A stretch of 64,000 nucleotides of DNA from Neoarius graeffei. Taxonomy: Eukaryota > Chordata > Actinopteri > Siluriformes > Ariidae. Location: the NCBI RefSeq assembly GCF_027579695.1, contig NC_083572.1:12975915-13039914 (forward strand). Direction: 5' to 3'. A program made the position numbers and the translations under genes. This document shows, in pieces, positions 2,827 to 10,656 of this stretch. Under the pieces are notes generated by a model. The model was given only the letters and a program-made list of their open reading frames with translations. It did not search any database and was not told the DNA's origin. Position 1 is the stretch's first letter. The number at the start of each line of letters is the position of its first letter.

Positions 2827-4260
2827 TATATCCAGGTTCTAGAGCAACATATTCTCCCATCCAGATGACGTCTCTTTCAGGGAAGACCTTGCATTTTCCA
2901 ACATGACAATGCCAAACCACATACTGCATCAATTACAGCATCACGGCTGCGTAGAAGAAGGGTCCGGGTACTGAACTGGCCAGCCTGCAGTCCAGATCTT
3001 TCACCCATAGAAAACATTTGGTGCATCATAAAACGGAAGATACGACAAAAAAGACCTAAGACAGTTGAGCAACTAGAATCCTACATTAGACAAGAATGGG
3101 TTAACATTCCTATCCCTAAACTTGAGCAACTTGTCTCCTCAGTCCCCAGACGTTTACAGACTGTTGTAAAGAGAAAAGGGGATGTCTCACAGTGGTAAAC
3201 ATGGCCTTGTCCCAACTTTTTTGAGATGTGTTGTTGTCATGAAATTTAAAATCACCTAATTTTTCTCTTTAAATGATACATTTCCTCAGTTTAAACATTT
3301 GATATGTCATCTATGTTCTATTCTGAATAAAATATGGAATTTTGAAACTTCCACATCATTGCATTCCGTTTTTATTTACAATTTTTTACTTTGTCCCAAC
3401 TTTTTTGGAATCAGGGTTGTATATCCTTTATTTCTTAACTCATGTAGTGTTTTGTTTTTTGTTTTTAAATCATGAAATGATTAAGAAAGTCCAGTAAAGA
3501 CAGCATTGCAAGCGAAAATTATTTTCTCAGCAGAAATGACGAATAATTAGCAAATTTAACAGCAGTTATTTCACTCTTTCAGGTTTAAAAGTTGTCGTGC
3601 CCCATTTCAACAGAACATACTTCTATAAGTTTCATGTACCAGTTCAAATTGTAGTTTTGTTGTTTTTGTTCTTAATATTGAGATATCGTTGAGATATAAT
3701 TTGATCAGTAATACCTCAGTAAAGCCACAACGATACGTACAGCCACATGTACAGTGGTGCTTGAAAGTTTGTGAACCCTTTAGAATTTTCTATATTTCTG
3801 CATAAATATGACCGAAAACATCAGATTTTCACACAAGTCCTAAAAGTAGATAAAGGGAACCCAGTTAAACAAATGAGACAAAAATATTATACTTGGTCAT
3901 TTATTTATTGAGAAAAATGATCCAGTATTACATATCTGTGAGTGGCAAAAGTATGTGAACCTCTAGGATTAGCAGTTAATTTGAAGGTGAAATTAAAGAC
4001 AGGTGTTTTCAATCAATGGAATGACAGTCAGGTGTGGGGTAGGCACCCTGTTTTATTTAAAGAACAGGGATCTATCAAAGTCTGATCTTCACAACACATG
4101 TTTGTGTTAGGACTAGGACTGTTTTGGCCTCTAGAGGCCGCTGTTATTTCCTTTTCATGTCGTGTTTATTTTGGCCTCTAGAGGCCGCCACTGTTCCTGT
4201 GTTTTGTGTTTGTGTTAATTGCCTAATTATCTTCACCTGTGTGCTTAATTAGTTTGTCTA

Positions 4261-4300
4261 TTTATACCCCTGAGTTCAGTCCTCTTGTCACGGAGTCTTT
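4261..4300 (+). promoter_or_regulatory. LTR core promoter and 5'-RNA self-priming segment
   Basis: TTTATA lies at 4261-4266 and acggagtcttt at 4290-4300, about 25 nt downstream, where the transcript should begin. This 11-mer is the exact reverse complement of 4584-4594 just after the LTR. In Tf1 the first 11 nt of the RNA anneal to the primer-binding site; the distance and length here match. The exact start site is inferred. Confidence 0.8.
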
Positions 4301-4513
4301 GTGCTGTTATGTTTATCTCCAGTTTCCTTTGTACTGTGTTTTTTGATCTTCTTAGCGTTTGAATTTTTGCACTTTGCTTTTCTTTTGGATTATACTCTTT
4401 GGTTTTTTTTTGTCTTTTGTTTTGCCCTGTATATAGTGTATATAGTTTAAATAAACCTTTTGATTCTTTTTCTACTTCCGCCTCACGCCTCTGCATTTGA
4501 GTCATCCCCCTGG

Positions 4514-4566
4514 TGGCCTAGTGGGGGTTTGCTGGATTATCACACCAACGAACCAGGTTCGAATCC
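4514..4566 (+). promoter_or_regulatory. Pol III type 2 promoter-like boxes in the LTR
   Basis: TGGCCTAGTGG (4514-4524) fits the A-box consensus TRGYNNARNGG at every position, and GGTTCGAATCC (4556-4566) fits the B-box GGTTCGANNCC. The 31-nt gap is within the tRNA range. The T-stem around the B-box pairs at only three of five positions and the acceptor stem does not pair, so this is a tRNA-like relic and not a tRNA gene. The same boxes recur in the 3' LTR, 4,824 bp downstream. Confidence 0.7.
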
Positions 4567-4583
4567 CAGCAAAACCCTAACAG

Positions 4584-4594
4584 AAAGACTCCGT
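4584..4594 (+). other. Primer-binding site, self-complementary to the LTR (self-primed)
   Basis: aaagactccgt starts two bases after the LTR's CA end and lacks the TGG start typical of tRNA-primed sites. It pairs perfectly with 4290-4300; the flanking bases on both sides do not pair, so the match is exactly 11 bp. It overlaps the region just upstream of the gag ATG (4596). Confidence 0.82.
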
Positions 4595-4595
4595 C

Positions 4596-5615
4596 ATGAC
4601 CGACTCAGCAGAGGCTGCTTCAACTGTCTACCCGGCCAACCTTCAGGGAATTATGGCAGCTTTGACACGCTTCGGAGCGACCATGGACGCTCATGGACGT
4701 ACGCTCACCAGCCAACGTGAGGCCCTCGCTCGCCACGAGGAACTGCTTCAGCAAATTGGGAAAACCCTGGCACAGCTGACATCTCTGCCTGCATCTCCTG
4801 CTCCTGATCCAGTTCCTGCTCCTGATCCAGCTCCCACTCCTGCTCCAGTGCCTCCTGCAATGCTGCCTTCTTCACCTCGCGAACCCAGCCTTCCTGCACC
4901 ACAGAGGTATGACGGCAAGCACAGTGAGTGCCGAGAGTTCCTTACCCAGTGTCAACTCACCTTTGAGCTTCAGCCTACCACCTACACTACGGATCGCCGC
5001 AAGATTGCCTTTGTGATCACCTTATTAGCTGGTAAGGCGCGAGCCTGGGCTACTGCTATCTGGCAAAGACAGGGACCTGAGTGCTTTGATTTCCAGCTGT
5101 TTTCTGAAGAGATGCTTCGGGTCTTCGATCAGGCAGACATCAGTACCGACGCAGCCCGAAAGCTCATGTCCATCCGGCAAGGAGGAAGCGTCGCAGATTA
5201 CGCCATCTCGTTCCGAACACTCGCAGCAGTAAGTGGATGGAACGAGACTGCCCTGGTGTCAGCCTTCCACCATGGTCTGTCTGACCCCATCAAGGACGGT
5301 CTGGCCTCTATTGGATGCCCAAGTGACCTCGAAACCCTCATCTCACATGCTATTCGTCTGGACAACAGGATGAGAGAACGCCACCAAGCCTTGAGCCCCC
5401 CCAGCCTCCCTACCTCTACCTGGAGACCGTCTACCTCCTTCAGTGACTGTCCAGAACCCATGCAAGTGGGTCGTACTCGCCTCTCCGCATCTGAGAGGGA
5501 GCGCAGAAGGAGGGACAAGTGCTGCATCTACTGTGGCAAGCCTGGTCACTTCCGAGCATCATGTCCCGAACTCTTGGGAAAAGGACCGCCCCGTCCAGCC
5601 GAGGGAGGGTTGTGA
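4596..5615 (+). CDS. Gag polyprotein of the sushi-type retrotransposon
   Basis: A 339-residue open frame. The start is 13 nt after the LTR end and 2 nt after the primer-binding site. It has a heptad-like N-terminal segment, a Pro/Asp/Ala-rich linker (about residues 66-88, [15 protein letters not shown]), a retrotransposon-Gag capsid-like domain (about 100-260, with [11 protein letters not shown] and an [13 protein letters not shown] stretch) and one CCHC zinc knuckle [14 protein letters not shown] (310-323) for RNA binding. Gag forms the cytoplasmic particle in which reverse transcription happens. The capsid region resembles the family from which the mammalian PEG10/RTL genes were domesticated. 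The frame ends just after the -1 frameshift signal at 5576. Confidence 0.93.
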
Positions 5616-5629
5616 CGGGGCCTACCCTC
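5576..5629 (+). promoter_or_regulatory. Programmed -1 ribosomal frameshift signal
   Basis: The heptamer G-GGA-AAA (5576-5582) is in the gag frame as X-XXY-YYZ. After a 6-nt spacer, ccccgtc (5589-5595) pairs perfectly with gacgggg (5614-5620). In the loop, gagggt (5605-5610) pairs with accctc (5624-5629), giving an H-type pseudoknot. Pol lies in the -1 frame. PEG10 uses GGGAAAC in the same position of its gag-pol overlap. Confidence 0.85.
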
Positions 5630-8600
5630 TCTCCCGGACTCCCTGGCCAAGGAATCTACATCCCGGTCTCCATCTCCTGGGGTGAGTCTGTCCACTCTTG
5701 TCAAGCTTTGATAGACTCAGGGGCGGCTGGGAACTTTATGGATATTCACTTCGCCCAAAGCATCAATATTCCGACTGCACCTCTTGAAGTCCCACTGTCT
5801 GTGTCTGCCCTCGATGGCCAAGCGTTAGGTGATGGAAGAGTCACCCAAGTTACTTCTCCAGTTTTCCTCCAGTCTCAAGGTCACAAGGAAGAAATATCCC
5901 TGCACCTGATTCCTTCACCTGAGTTCCCAGTTATTCTAGGCCTTCCTTGGCTTACTCGCCACAACCCTCGCATAGACTGGGTAACAAGCCAGGTTGTGGA
6001 ATGGGGCCCTGCATGCCATGCCTCTTGTCTGCTCTCTAGCTCTCCTGTGTCTCCTGCCGAGCCCCCTGATCTCACCGAGTTATCTCAAGTTCCCACAGAG
6101 TACTGGGATCTCAAGGAGGTATTCAGCAAGAGCAGGGCCGCCGTTCTTCCTCCGCACCGGGCCTACGACTGTGCCATCGACTTGCTCCCTGGGACTACCC
6201 CTCCTCGTGGCAGACTGTTTTCACTCTCTCAGCCAGAACGCAAGGCCATGGAGGAATACCTCAAAGATGCCCTGGTCTCTGGGTTTATTCGACCCTCCAC
6301 TTCACCTGCTGGTGCCGGCTTCTTCTTTGTCGGCAAGAAGGATGGGGGGCTCCGACCATGTATTGATTACAGGGGCCTGAATAAGATCACTGTGCGCAAC
6401 CGATATCCCCTTCTGCTGATGTCCACAGCTTTCGACCTGCTCCAAGGCGCCACCGTCTTCACCAAGTTGGACCTACGGAACGCATACCACCTCATCCGTA
6501 TCCGACAGGGAGACGAGTGGAAGACTGCCTTTAACACCCCGTCTGGGCACTACGAATACCAGGTGATGCCCTTCGGACTCACCAACGCACCAGCTGTTTT
6601 TCAGGCCCTAATCAACGACGTCTTAAGGGACATGATTAACCTATACGTTTTTGTCTACCTCGACGACATCCTTATCTTTTCCAAGACCGTGCAGGAGCAC
6701 CGCCACCATGTCCGCCAGGTTCTCCAGAGGCTGCTACAGAACAATCTGTTCGCCAAGGCCCAGAAATGCGAATTTCATGTTCCCGAGGTCTCCTTTCTGG
6801 GATTTATTGTACGGACAGGCCAACTCCAAATGGACCCTGCCAAGACCCTGGCCGTCCGGGATTGGCCTACTCCCAAGTCCGTTAAGGAGGTTCAGCGGTT
6901 CTTAGGATTCGCTAACTTCTACCGCAAGTTCATCAGGAACTTCAGTTCTGTGGCAGCACCCATGTCAGACCTCACCAAAGGGACAGGTGGATCTTATGGC
7001 TGGTCTCCTCAGGCAGAAAAGGCGTTCAAAGACCTCAAGGACCGCTTCTGCACGGCACCCATTCTGGTTCTCCCGGACACCTCCCAACCATTCATCGTGG
7101 AGGTGGACGCCTCGGACAGTGGTGTCGGCGCGGTGCTCTCTCAACGTTCGGAAGGAAAGCTGCACCCCTGCGCTTACTTCTCCCACCGCCTGAGTCCTGC
7201 TGAGTCCCGGTACGATGTGGGGGATCGAGAACTGCTAGCGGTCAAACTGGCCCTTGAGGAGTGGAGGCACTGGCTGGAGGGAGCACAACATCCATTCCTG
7301 GTTTGGACTGACCACAAGAACCTGGAGTACCTCCAGCAAGCCAAGAGACTGAACCCTCGACAGGCTAGGTGGGCCCTGTTTTTCAGTCGGTTTGACTTCA
7401 CCCTCTCATACCGCCCCGGCTCCAAGAACACCAAACCTGACGCACTGTCCAGACTGTTCTCTGCCACTAACAGGGAGAATGAAGTCGGGCCTATTATCCC
7501 TGTGTCCCAGATTGTGGCCCCTGTCCGCTGGGGTATTGAGGAGGCTGTCCGACGAGCCCAACGCCAGGACCCCGGTCCTGGGACGGGGCCACCAGGCCTC
7601 TTGTACGTCCCACATCAAGCCCGGGCCAAGGTTCTCCAGTGGGGTCACTCTTCCCCTCTCACCGCCCACCCGGGAGCTCGGAGGACCCTGGACTTCCTGA
7701 AAAGACGCTTCTGGTGGCCTAACATGGAGAAGGAAGTAAGGTCATTTGTCCTGTCCTGTGAGGTTTGCACCAGAACCAAGAACCCACGACAGCGTCCCCA
7801 GGGTCTCCTGCATCCTCTGACCATTCCCCGGCGTCCCTGGTCCCACGTGGCAGTCGACTTTATCACGGGTCTCCCTGAGTCACAAGGTAACACGGTCATT
7901 TTGGTCTTAGTTGACAGATTCTCCAAGGCCTGCCGCTTCATACCACTGTGCAAACTCCCCTCTGCTCTTGAAACTGCGAAACTTTTGTTTAATCATGTCT
8001 TCCGAGTCTTTGGTCTTCCACAGGACATCGTCTCAGACCGAGGGCCCCAGTTCTCCTCCCGAGTGTGGCACGGGTTCTGCAAGGTCATCGGAGCCACTGC
8101 CAGCCTCTCCTCTGGGTTTCACCCACAGTCCAATGGTCAGACGGAGAGGCTCAACCAGGACCTGGAAACCACCCTGCGAGGCCTGGCTATGGATAACCCG
8201 ACATCGTGGAGCACCTGGCTGCCATGGGCGGAGTACGCCCACAACACCCTGCAGTCATCGGCCACCAAGCTGTCGCCATTCCAGTGCCAATTCGGGTTCC
8301 AGCCACCTCTGTTCCCGGACCAGGAGGAGGACGCGGGGGTGCCCTCGGTCAACCAATATGTGAGACGGTGTCGCAAGACCTGGAGCAAGGTCAGGAAGAC
8401 CCTCATACAGACCTCCAGAACCAACCAGACTCAGGCCAACCGCCATAGAAGACCTGCACACGCTTTCCGCCCTGGGCAGCGTGTTTGGCTGTCCACTAAG
8501 GACCTTCCACTGCGGGTGGAGAACCGCAAGCTTGCTCCTCGCTACATTGGCCCCTTCAAGGTGGTGCGCAGGGTGAACCCTGTCTCCTACCGGCTCCAGT

Positions 8601-8914
8601 TGCCCCGGACTCTGAGGATCAACCCCACTTTCCATGTTTCCCTGTTATGGCCCGTACTGACGTCTACGTATGCCCCTGCCCCTAGGAACCCCCCACCCCC
8701 CCGCATCTTCCAGGGGCAGACTGTGTTCACTGTGAATCGCCTGCTTGACTCCCGCCGGGTCCGCGGCGGGTTGCAATATCTGGTGGACTGGGAGGGCTAT
8801 GGTTCTGAGGAGCGCTGCTGGGTTCCTGCTCAGGATGTCCTTGATAAAGAACTATGTCGGGACTTCCATTCGGCCCATCCGGATCGCCCTGGGAACGTCA
8901 GGAGACGCTCCTAG
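5577..8914 (+). CDS. Pol polyprotein (PR-RT-RNase H-IN-chromodomain)
   Basis: Expressed by -1 frameshifting at 5576-5582; an in-frame ATG at 5519 exists but lies upstream of the slip site and is probably not used. About 1,110 residues without a stop. Visible in order: aspartic protease ([10 protein letters not shown], about 5709-5738); reverse transcriptase ([20 protein letters not shown], catalytic YLDD near 6655); RNase H ([13 protein letters not shown] and TDHKNLEY); integrase zinc-binding HHCC (HPGARR...CEVC) and DDE core ([25 protein letters not shown]); C-terminal chromodomain (about 8728-8870, [16 protein letters not shown]). Such chromodomains steer integration towards marked chromatin. 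All catalytic residues checked are present. Confidence 0.95.
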
Positions 8915-8925
8915 AGGGGGGGGGG
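8914..8925 (+). other. Polypurine tract
   Basis: gagggggggggg lies just before the 3' LTR (three bases, TCC, intervene) and overlaps the end of the pol stop codon. It would prime plus-strand DNA synthesis. Confidence 0.8.
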
Positions 8926-8928
8926 TCC

Positions 8929-9406
8929 TGTTAGGACTAGGACTGTTTTGGCCTCTAGAGGCCGCTGTTATTTCCTTTTCATGTCGTGTTTATTTTGGCC
9001 TCTAGAGGCCGCCACTGTTCCTGTGTTTTGTGTTTGTGTTAATTGCCTAATTATCTTCACCTGTGTCCTTAATTAGTTTGTCTATTTATACCCCTGAGTT
9101 CAGTCCTCTTGTCACGGAGTCTTTGTGCTGTTATGTTTATCTCCAGTTTCCTTTGTACTGTGTTTTTTGATCTTCTTAGCGTTTGAATTTTTGCACTTTG
9201 CTTTTCTTTTGGATTATACTCTTTGGTTTTTTTTTGTCTTTTGTTTTGCCCTGTATATAGTGTATATAGTTTAAATAAACCTTTTGATTCTTTTTCTACT
9301 TCCGCCTCACGCCTCTGCATTTGAGTCATCCCCCTGGTGGCCTAGTGGGGGTTTGCTGGATTATCACACCAACGAACCAGGTTCGAATCCCAGCAAAACC
9401 CTAACA
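8929..9406 (+). repeat. 3' LTR
   Basis: 478 bp, same as the 5' LTR except C at 9067 for G at 4243. It is followed by the GTTTG target duplication at 9407-9411. Confidence 0.97.
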
Positions 9407-9423
9407 GTTTGTGGAAGTGTATC

Positions 9424-10436: not shown

Positions 10437-10656
10437 AAGCAAAGGTTCACGTACTTTTGCCACTCACAGATATGTAATATTGGATCATTTTCCTCAATAA
10501 ATAAATGACCAAGTATAATATTTTTGTCTCATTTGTTTAACTGGGTTCTCTTTATCTACTTTTAGGACTTGTGTGAAAATCTGATGATGTTTTCGGTCAT
10601 ATTTATACAGAAATATAGAATATTCTAAAGGATTCACAAACTTTCAAGCACCACTG

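What the first reader, a model, noticed from the sequence alone, without database searches (positions are those of the whole stretch)
4261..4594. Self-primed reverse transcription signature in a young sushi-type element
Eleven bases after the 5' LTR (4584-4594) are perfectly complementary to eleven bases at the predicted RNA 5' end (4290-4300), about 25 nt after TTTATA. The match is bounded by mismatches at both ends. Tf1 of fission yeast uses exactly an 11-nt self-primer, and the vertebrate Tf1/sushi group is known to share the layout. Here it comes with near-identical LTRs and open frames, so the mechanism could be tested in a live vertebrate element.
Basis: partly seen in the sequence, partly recalled or inferred. 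Interest (0 to 1): 0.82.

Follow-up and report, generated by a model that had tools for sequence, protein, structure and literature searches.

The report
Self-priming signal in vertebrate sushi retrotransposon
A young jumping element in this animal genome carries a short stretch at the likely start of its RNA that pairs perfectly with the site where its copying into DNA begins, and related families keep the pairing with different letters, so it very probably starts copying from its own RNA end instead of borrowing a cellular tRNA, a mechanism already known from yeast and predicted before for vertebrate relatives.

Summary
The element is a complete chromodomain Ty3/gypsy element of the Tf1/sushi kind, 5' LTR 4105-4582, TSD GTTTG. 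Of 45 copies counted from three related families, 32 pair 11 of 11 and 9 more pair with G-U; 4 have mismatches. Double changes that keep pairing occur at primer positions 3 (10 copies), 6 and 9 (one copy each). Two more distant families have different matched pairs of 10 and 9 nt, 30-31 nt after the TATA-like box. Two further duplexes resemble the three-duplex 'pretzel' of Tf1. Self-priming is thus strongly supported by sequence, not shown biochemically. It is a known mechanism in a known group: a new member of a known kind. The most unusual extra is a U5 that is probably tRNA-derived in three of the five families looked at.

The parts
4105..4582 (+). 5' LTR, TGTTAGG..CCTAACA, 478 bp
8929..9406 (+). 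3' LTR
4100..4104 (.). target-site duplication GTTTG (second copy 9407-9411)
4261..4266 (+). TTTATA promoter box; present in 25 of 25 copies aligned
4290..4300 (+). self-primer, predicted first 11 nt of the RNA (ACGGAGTCTTT)
   Evidence: RNA 5' end itself not mapped
4584..4594 (+). primer-binding site AAAGACTCCGT, 1 nt after the LTR
4304..4309 (+). CTGTTA, pairs with TAACAG 4578-4583 at the LTR end (second duplex), beside the primer duplex with GUG 4301-4303 unpaired
   Evidence: 12 of 5000 shuffles have it in place
4578..4583 (+). TAACAG, partner of 4304-4309
4487..4503 (+). GCCTCTGC-ATT-TGAGTC, can pair with 4602-4615 in the gag start (third duplex, a pseudoknot that the fold program cannot show)
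   Evidence: 0 of 5000 shuffles; nearly conserved in family B
4602..4615 (+). GACTCAGCAGAGGC, partner of 4487-4503, inside gag codons
4450..4455 (+). AATAAA; R/U5 border probably a little further on
   Evidence: inference
4514..4566 (+). probably tRNA-derived part of U5: A box 4514-4525, B box 4556-4566; overlaps a predicted U5 hairpin 4522-4579
4596..5615 (+). gag
5576..5582 (+). predicted -1 frameshift heptamer G GGA AAA in gag register, followed by a stable stem-loop
   Evidence: z -2.46; 2 of 200 shuffles as stable
5519..8914 (+). pro-pol frame: protease, RT, RNase H, integrase (H2C2, rve, SH3_Tf2-1), chromodomain
8913..8925 (+). polypurine tract beside the 3' LTR
   Evidence: sequence, by eye

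Best explanation
The element is a complete Tf1/sushi-type LTR retrotransposon that primes its own reverse transcription. Transcription starts at about 4290, so the RNA begins ACGGAGUCUUU. This end folds back onto the PBS at 4584-4594 while two flanking duplexes (4304-4309/4578-4583 and 4487-4503/4602-4615) hold the leader in a three-duplex 'pretzel' like that described for Tf1. RNase H of the element's RT then cuts after about nt 11, and the freed 3' end primes minus-strand synthesis through U5 and R. Because the primer is copied back into the PBS during plus-strand synthesis while the 11-mer of both new LTRs comes from the RNA's 3' R, a primer mutation should be written into the PBS one round later, keeping the two matched. 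Shown: sequences, complementarities, double changes. Inferred: start site, cleavage, priming and the order of rewriting.
For: 11-nt exact match at the right distance from TATA and LTR. Young family: 27 of 28 copies counted pair 11 of 11, one of them (L032) through a coordinated change in both of its LTRs and in its PBS. Family B: primer ACTGAGTC, PBS GACTCAGT; 5 of 11 perfect, 3 more with G-U. Family I: L124 has A-U where others have G-C or G-U at position 6. 12 distinct primer/PBS genotypes: 127 of 132 positions paired, reached in 38 of 20000 re-pairings (Watson-Crick only: 121, reached in 233 of 20000). Family C: 10-nt match, PBS exact in 2 of the 3 copies in which it was read and one change in the third. 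Family D: 9 nt in one element's own LTR and PBS. Second and third duplex. No TGG at the start of the PBS, as a whole-tRNA primer would require (rule recalled, and used in PMC6317226, passage). Chromodomain integrase with SH3_Tf2-1.
Against: No RNA data: start site, cleavage and strong-stop DNA are unobserved. 13 of 45 copies are not 11/11 Watson-Crick; 4 of them (L025, L061, L062, L064) have mismatches, 9 differ only by G-U. L064 and its presumed 3' LTR L070 (6.9 kb away) carry the A-type primer but the PBS is B-type. L072 and L085 lack TATA and primer (L072 also in its presumed 3' LTR, L086) and yet were copied. The minimum-free-energy fold of the whole leader forms the first two duplexes but is not better than shuffles (z -0.97, 20 of 100). 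The second and third duplex hardly vary and so carry no covariation; the second duplex's 6-mer occurs somewhere in 664 of 5000 shuffles. Matches in C and D are shorter and rest on few copies (4 and 10 of 5000 shuffles). The re-pairing control ignores relatedness.
Confidence: 0.9

Rival explanations
1. A host tRNA primes, and the match is incidental or serves only to fold the leader.
For: Most LTR elements use tRNAs (recalled); the U5 here is itself probably tRNA-derived.
Against: The PBS does not start with TGG, and primer and PBS differ together between families. Internal (half-tRNA) priming was not tested against host tRNAs.
Confidence: 0.04
2. The match is kept by selection on a leader structure used for packaging or translation, with priming from elsewhere.
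For: Two more long-range duplexes are possible, one inside gag codons.
Against: The match sits at the predicted RNA end and 1-2 nt after the LTR in families A, C and D and, by the sequences printed, in B and I: where priming must occur.
Confidence: 0.05
3. The double changes come from recombination or gene conversion between families, not from primer copying or selection on pairing.
For: Some family-B LTRs look mosaic by eye (L061 in the B-box region, L064 in the primer).
Against: L032's change is in no other copy read, and is present at all three sites; the D primer has no likeness to A. This would not argue against self-priming itself.
Confidence: 0.15

Closest known systems
Tf1/sushi group of chromoviruses (Tf1, Tf2, Tj1, sushi-ichi)
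   Same: Chromodomain, self-primer at the RNA 5' end, PBS after the LTR, three-duplex 'pretzel' (PMC10085805, passages); PBS complementary to the RNA 5' end in Tj1 (PMC4600332, passages). LTR ends fit the published Sushi motifs TGTYANR / CNTNACA (PMC3601003, passage).
   Different: Gag and pol are separate frames with a predicted -1 frameshift; U5 is probably tRNA-derived; the third duplex lies in gag codons. Whether other sushi elements share these was not checked.
Vertebrate sushi elements with predicted self-priming (Butler et al. 2001, not held; known here through citations)
   Same: Same group, same predicted mechanism in vertebrates.
   Different: Here the prediction is tested by matched changes across five families of one genome; whether that paper did something similar could not be checked.
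Tcn1-lineage chromoviruses of mosses and club-mosses (PMC6317226, passages)
   Same: Predicted self-priming by LTR/PBS complementarity.
   Different: Plant hosts; the criterion there was a match of at least 10 bp starting 0-5 bp after the LTR.
Cassandra elements (PMC7215508, search listing only; 5S content recalled)
   Same: A Pol III-type gene sequence inside an LTR.
   Different: 5S rRNA and non-autonomous plant elements; here tRNA-like, in an element with gag and pol.

Membership tests
Tf1/sushi chromoviruses | Ty3/gypsy order PR-RT-RNase H-IN | tested here: met
   pieces searched apart
Tf1/sushi chromoviruses | integrase C-terminal chromodomain and Tf2-1-like SH3 | tested here: met
   Chromo 1.1e-09, SH3_Tf2-1 2.6e-20
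Tf1/sushi chromoviruses | PBS complementary to the predicted 5' end of its own RNA | tested here: met
   the RNA end is a prediction
Tf1/sushi chromoviruses | three-duplex leader ('pretzel') | tested here: met
   complementarity, two of the three in the MFE fold, which is not significantly stable
Tf1/sushi chromoviruses | LTR end motifs TGTYANR / CNTNACA | tested here: met
   TGTTAGG / CCTAACA against table 3 of PMC3601003
Tf1/sushi chromoviruses | branching with Tf1/sushi in an RT-IN tree | not tested
   no tree was built
Tf1/sushi chromoviruses | RNase H cleavage after nt 11 and priming from it | not testable with these tools
   needs RNA and cDNA ends
tRNA-primed LTR elements | PBS starting TGG, complementary to a tRNA 3' end | tested here: not met
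   GAAAGACTCCGTC follows the LTR; by eye, no comparison with host tRNAs

The most novel reading that the evidence does not exclude
In this lineage the self-primed leader has taken in a tRNA gene as its U5. The module could stand in cis where a tRNA primer once stood, presenting tRNA arms to RT next to the PBS and forming the U5 hairpin, or it could act as an internal Pol III promoter giving short transcripts across the PBS. Separately, the genome would record the self-priming cycle itself: a primer mutation rewritten into the PBS (L032), copies caught one round behind (L064; L122 and L132), and LTR deletions whose edge lies at the primer's 3' end (L072/L086, L085).
Probability: 0.2. Interest if true: 0.75.

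Novelty: new member of a known kind. Interest (0 to 1): 0.5.

Why it matters
Self-priming was worked out in fission yeast; for vertebrates the passages I could read give it as an inference. A genome with several families, some with near-identical LTRs, offers a natural series of matched primer/PBS changes, so the mechanism can be tested in an animal by comparing copies and by mapping RNA and cDNA ends.

Tried and rejected
No relative was confirmed in viral contigs with the RT-RNase H piece (57 pattern matches, none confirmed) or in genome contigs with the integrase piece (11, none); both tools may leave out the window's own genome. ARAGORN finds no tRNA in the window or in nine LTR loci. Rfam gives no tRNA in the window or in five family-B loci; of five further loci only L105 gives a tRNA match, below the cut-off. 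A Pol III role of U5 is left open: exact A and B boxes are both present in 24 of 25 young copies, but in only 14 of 29 family-B LTRs (30 loci, one not located) and 2 of 15 other LTRs, which fits decay or no function. I first read L032's PBS as an insertion through a bulged primer; copies with the same extra A (L034, L035, L037) make a plain pair of substitutions simpler, so I dropped it. The windows L121, L143 and L144 missed the PBS. DNA slippage between the six-base repeats TGTGCT is an equal reading of the L072/L085 deletion.

Full report
Observation. The LTR is 4105-4582; the PBS follows after one base and gag starts at 4596. The LTRs differ at one of 477 compared positions, the TSD is GTTTG, and both frames are open. 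The pol frame is -1 to gag, with a G GGA AAA heptamer in register at 5576-5582 and a stable stem-loop behind it. Pfam gives gag, protease, RT, RNase H, integrase, SH3_Tf2-1 and chromodomain.

Copies of the same family. In the host genome (2.34 Gb, 38 contigs, unnamed) 40 of 104 first-look candidates were scored; 25 of the 40 span LTR and PBS, the window among them. I read the leaders of the 24 others. With the window, 25 of 25 have TTTATA, and 23 of 25 have both 11-mers as in the window. L025 has one PBS change (CpG to CA) and no primer change. L032 has primer ACGGAGTCATT and PBS AATGACTCCGT: both changed, still 11 of 11, and its 3' LTR has the changed primer too. The 17 further LTR pairs read have 0-1 substitutions each and matching TSDs; several have gap columns, L031 has 22. 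L034, L035 and L037 have one more spacer base and the same 11-mers.

Other families. Family B is older (2125 candidates, 40 scored, 83-97% identical to the query apart from the query itself). Its commonest primer is ACTGAGTCTTT and its commonest PBS AAAGACTCAGT: a G-C to T-A change at position 3. Of 11 copies with both parts, 5 pair 11 of 11, 3 more pair if G-U is counted, and 3 have mismatches. In the intermediate family I, 9 copies were read and 6 are free of indels in the two sites; all 6 pair at 11 positions with one G-U each, and L124 shows A-U at position 6 where L122 and L132 show G-U and the others G-C. So position 3 rests on 10 copies, positions 6 and 9 on one copy each. Left out of the count of 45: L036 (LTR truncated), L041 (no element), L072 and L085 (no primer), L128, L136 and L138 (indels), and second fetches of the same places.

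Shuffling PBSs among the 12 distinct genotypes reaches the observed pairing in 38 of 20000 trials, or 233 of 20000 for Watson-Crick pairs only. This control ignores relatedness, so it is a guide and not a probability.

Two more distant families. Family C (70% identical over 922 bases near the integrase end) has a very different LTR. All 5 of its 3' LTRs read have GCTGAGTTCT in R, 31 nt after the TATA-like box in L102. From that I expected a PBS AGAACTCAGC; the expectation was not logged in any call before the sequence was read, so it counts only as my word. The 5' side of the L102 element then showed CCCTGACA-GA-AGAACTCAGC. Of four further windows two held a PBS: L142 exact, L141 with one change. 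Family D (L145, one element, own 5' LTR) has CTCTGACCT 30 nt after its TATA-like box and AGGTCAGAG two bases after the LTR. 4 and 10 of 5000 shuffled R windows give matches as long.

Leader structure. PMC10085805 (passages) says that Tf1 needs three duplexes: primer with PBS, and two between sequences beside the PBS and the LTR. Here CTGTTA 4304-4309 is complementary to TAACAG 4578-4583, and GCCTCTGC-ATT-TGAGTC 4487-4503 to GACTCAGCAGAGGC 4602-4615. Chance: 12 of 5000 shuffles have the first in place (664 of 5000 anywhere in R-U5), 0 of 5000 the second. In family B each has one pair fewer. They hardly vary, so they add no covariation. The unconstrained fold of the leader forms the primer-PBS duplex and the 4304-4309 duplex, but is no more stable than shuffles (z -0.97; 20 of 100 as stable). 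The third would be a pseudoknot, which that program cannot show.

Exceptions. L064 has the G-type primer, as does L070, presumably its 3' LTR, but an A-type letter in the PBS. In a self-primed cycle the LTR 11-mers come from the RNA's 3' R and the PBS from its 5' end, so a parent with unlike LTRs would give such a copy; this is inference. L072 and its presumed 3' LTR L086 lack the stretch from U3 to about the end of the 11-mer, and L085 has the same junction (its 3' LTR was not read; the match range fits). The right edge lies where the primer ends, within a six-base repeat. This fits a mis-transfer of strong-stop DNA ending at the cleavage site, but DNA slippage explains it as well.

U5. The U5 of the window has A and B boxes with tRNA spacing; 10 of 20000 LTR shuffles have a B box and none both. 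Families B and I carry the same region with exact boxes in part of the copies. Rfam's tRNA model matches the U5 of L105 (1 of 5 loci searched) over positions 7-64 of 71, with all three arms, at 21.3 bits, below the cut-off of 29, E-value 2 over all families. So U5 is probably tRNA-derived without the acceptor stem; likeness to tRNA-Glu is recalled only. I see no such boxes in families C and D (by eye). Function is open. In the fold of the window U5 the region forms a long hairpin, not a cloverleaf, and is not clearly more stable than shuffles (z -1.64).

Literature. Seen as passages: PMC4600332, PMC6317226, PMC3601003, PMC10085805. Butler et al. 2001 and three further papers on self-priming that I looked up are not held. 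The passages say that Tf1/sushi elements, vertebrate ones included, are thought to self-prime. The 11-nt length in Tf1 is recalled. A search for self-priming, primer binding site, compensatory and LTR retrotransposon gave one paper, on amoeba elements (listing only); searches for tRNA or Pol III parts in LTRs gave no such fish element in the listings (the last listed 15 of 17). This is an open-access library, so it does not show that either point is unpublished.

Verdict. Self-priming is the best reading, with strong comparative support, in a group where it was expected. The finding is sound and good test material; its kind is known.

Noticed in passing
window 3819-3962 and 10443-10586: 144-nt inverted arms, 97% complementary, around the element; the sequence between looks like a Tc1-like transposon (recalled likeness), so the retrotransposon seems nested in it.
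   Followed up: partly
window 5576-5640: Predicted -1 frameshift heptamer G GGA AAA in register with a stable stem-loop.
   Followed up: partly
window 4514-4566: tRNA-like A and B boxes in U5 of a self-primed element.
   Followed up: partly
L072, L085, L086: Family-B copies without TATA and primer; deletion edge at about the primer's 3' end.
   Followed up: partly
window 13777, 19769, 22295, 27302, 34831, 36928, 37065, 39994, 40459, 56701: Copies of a repeat with a B-box-like GGTTCGAGCCC or near it, probably a SINE; a similar sequence interrupts the family C LTR in L140.
   Followed up: no
G000: 25150 first-look candidates for SH3_Tf2-1 (150 scored), several with frames over 1100 aa: chromoviruses seem very abundant here.
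   Followed up: no
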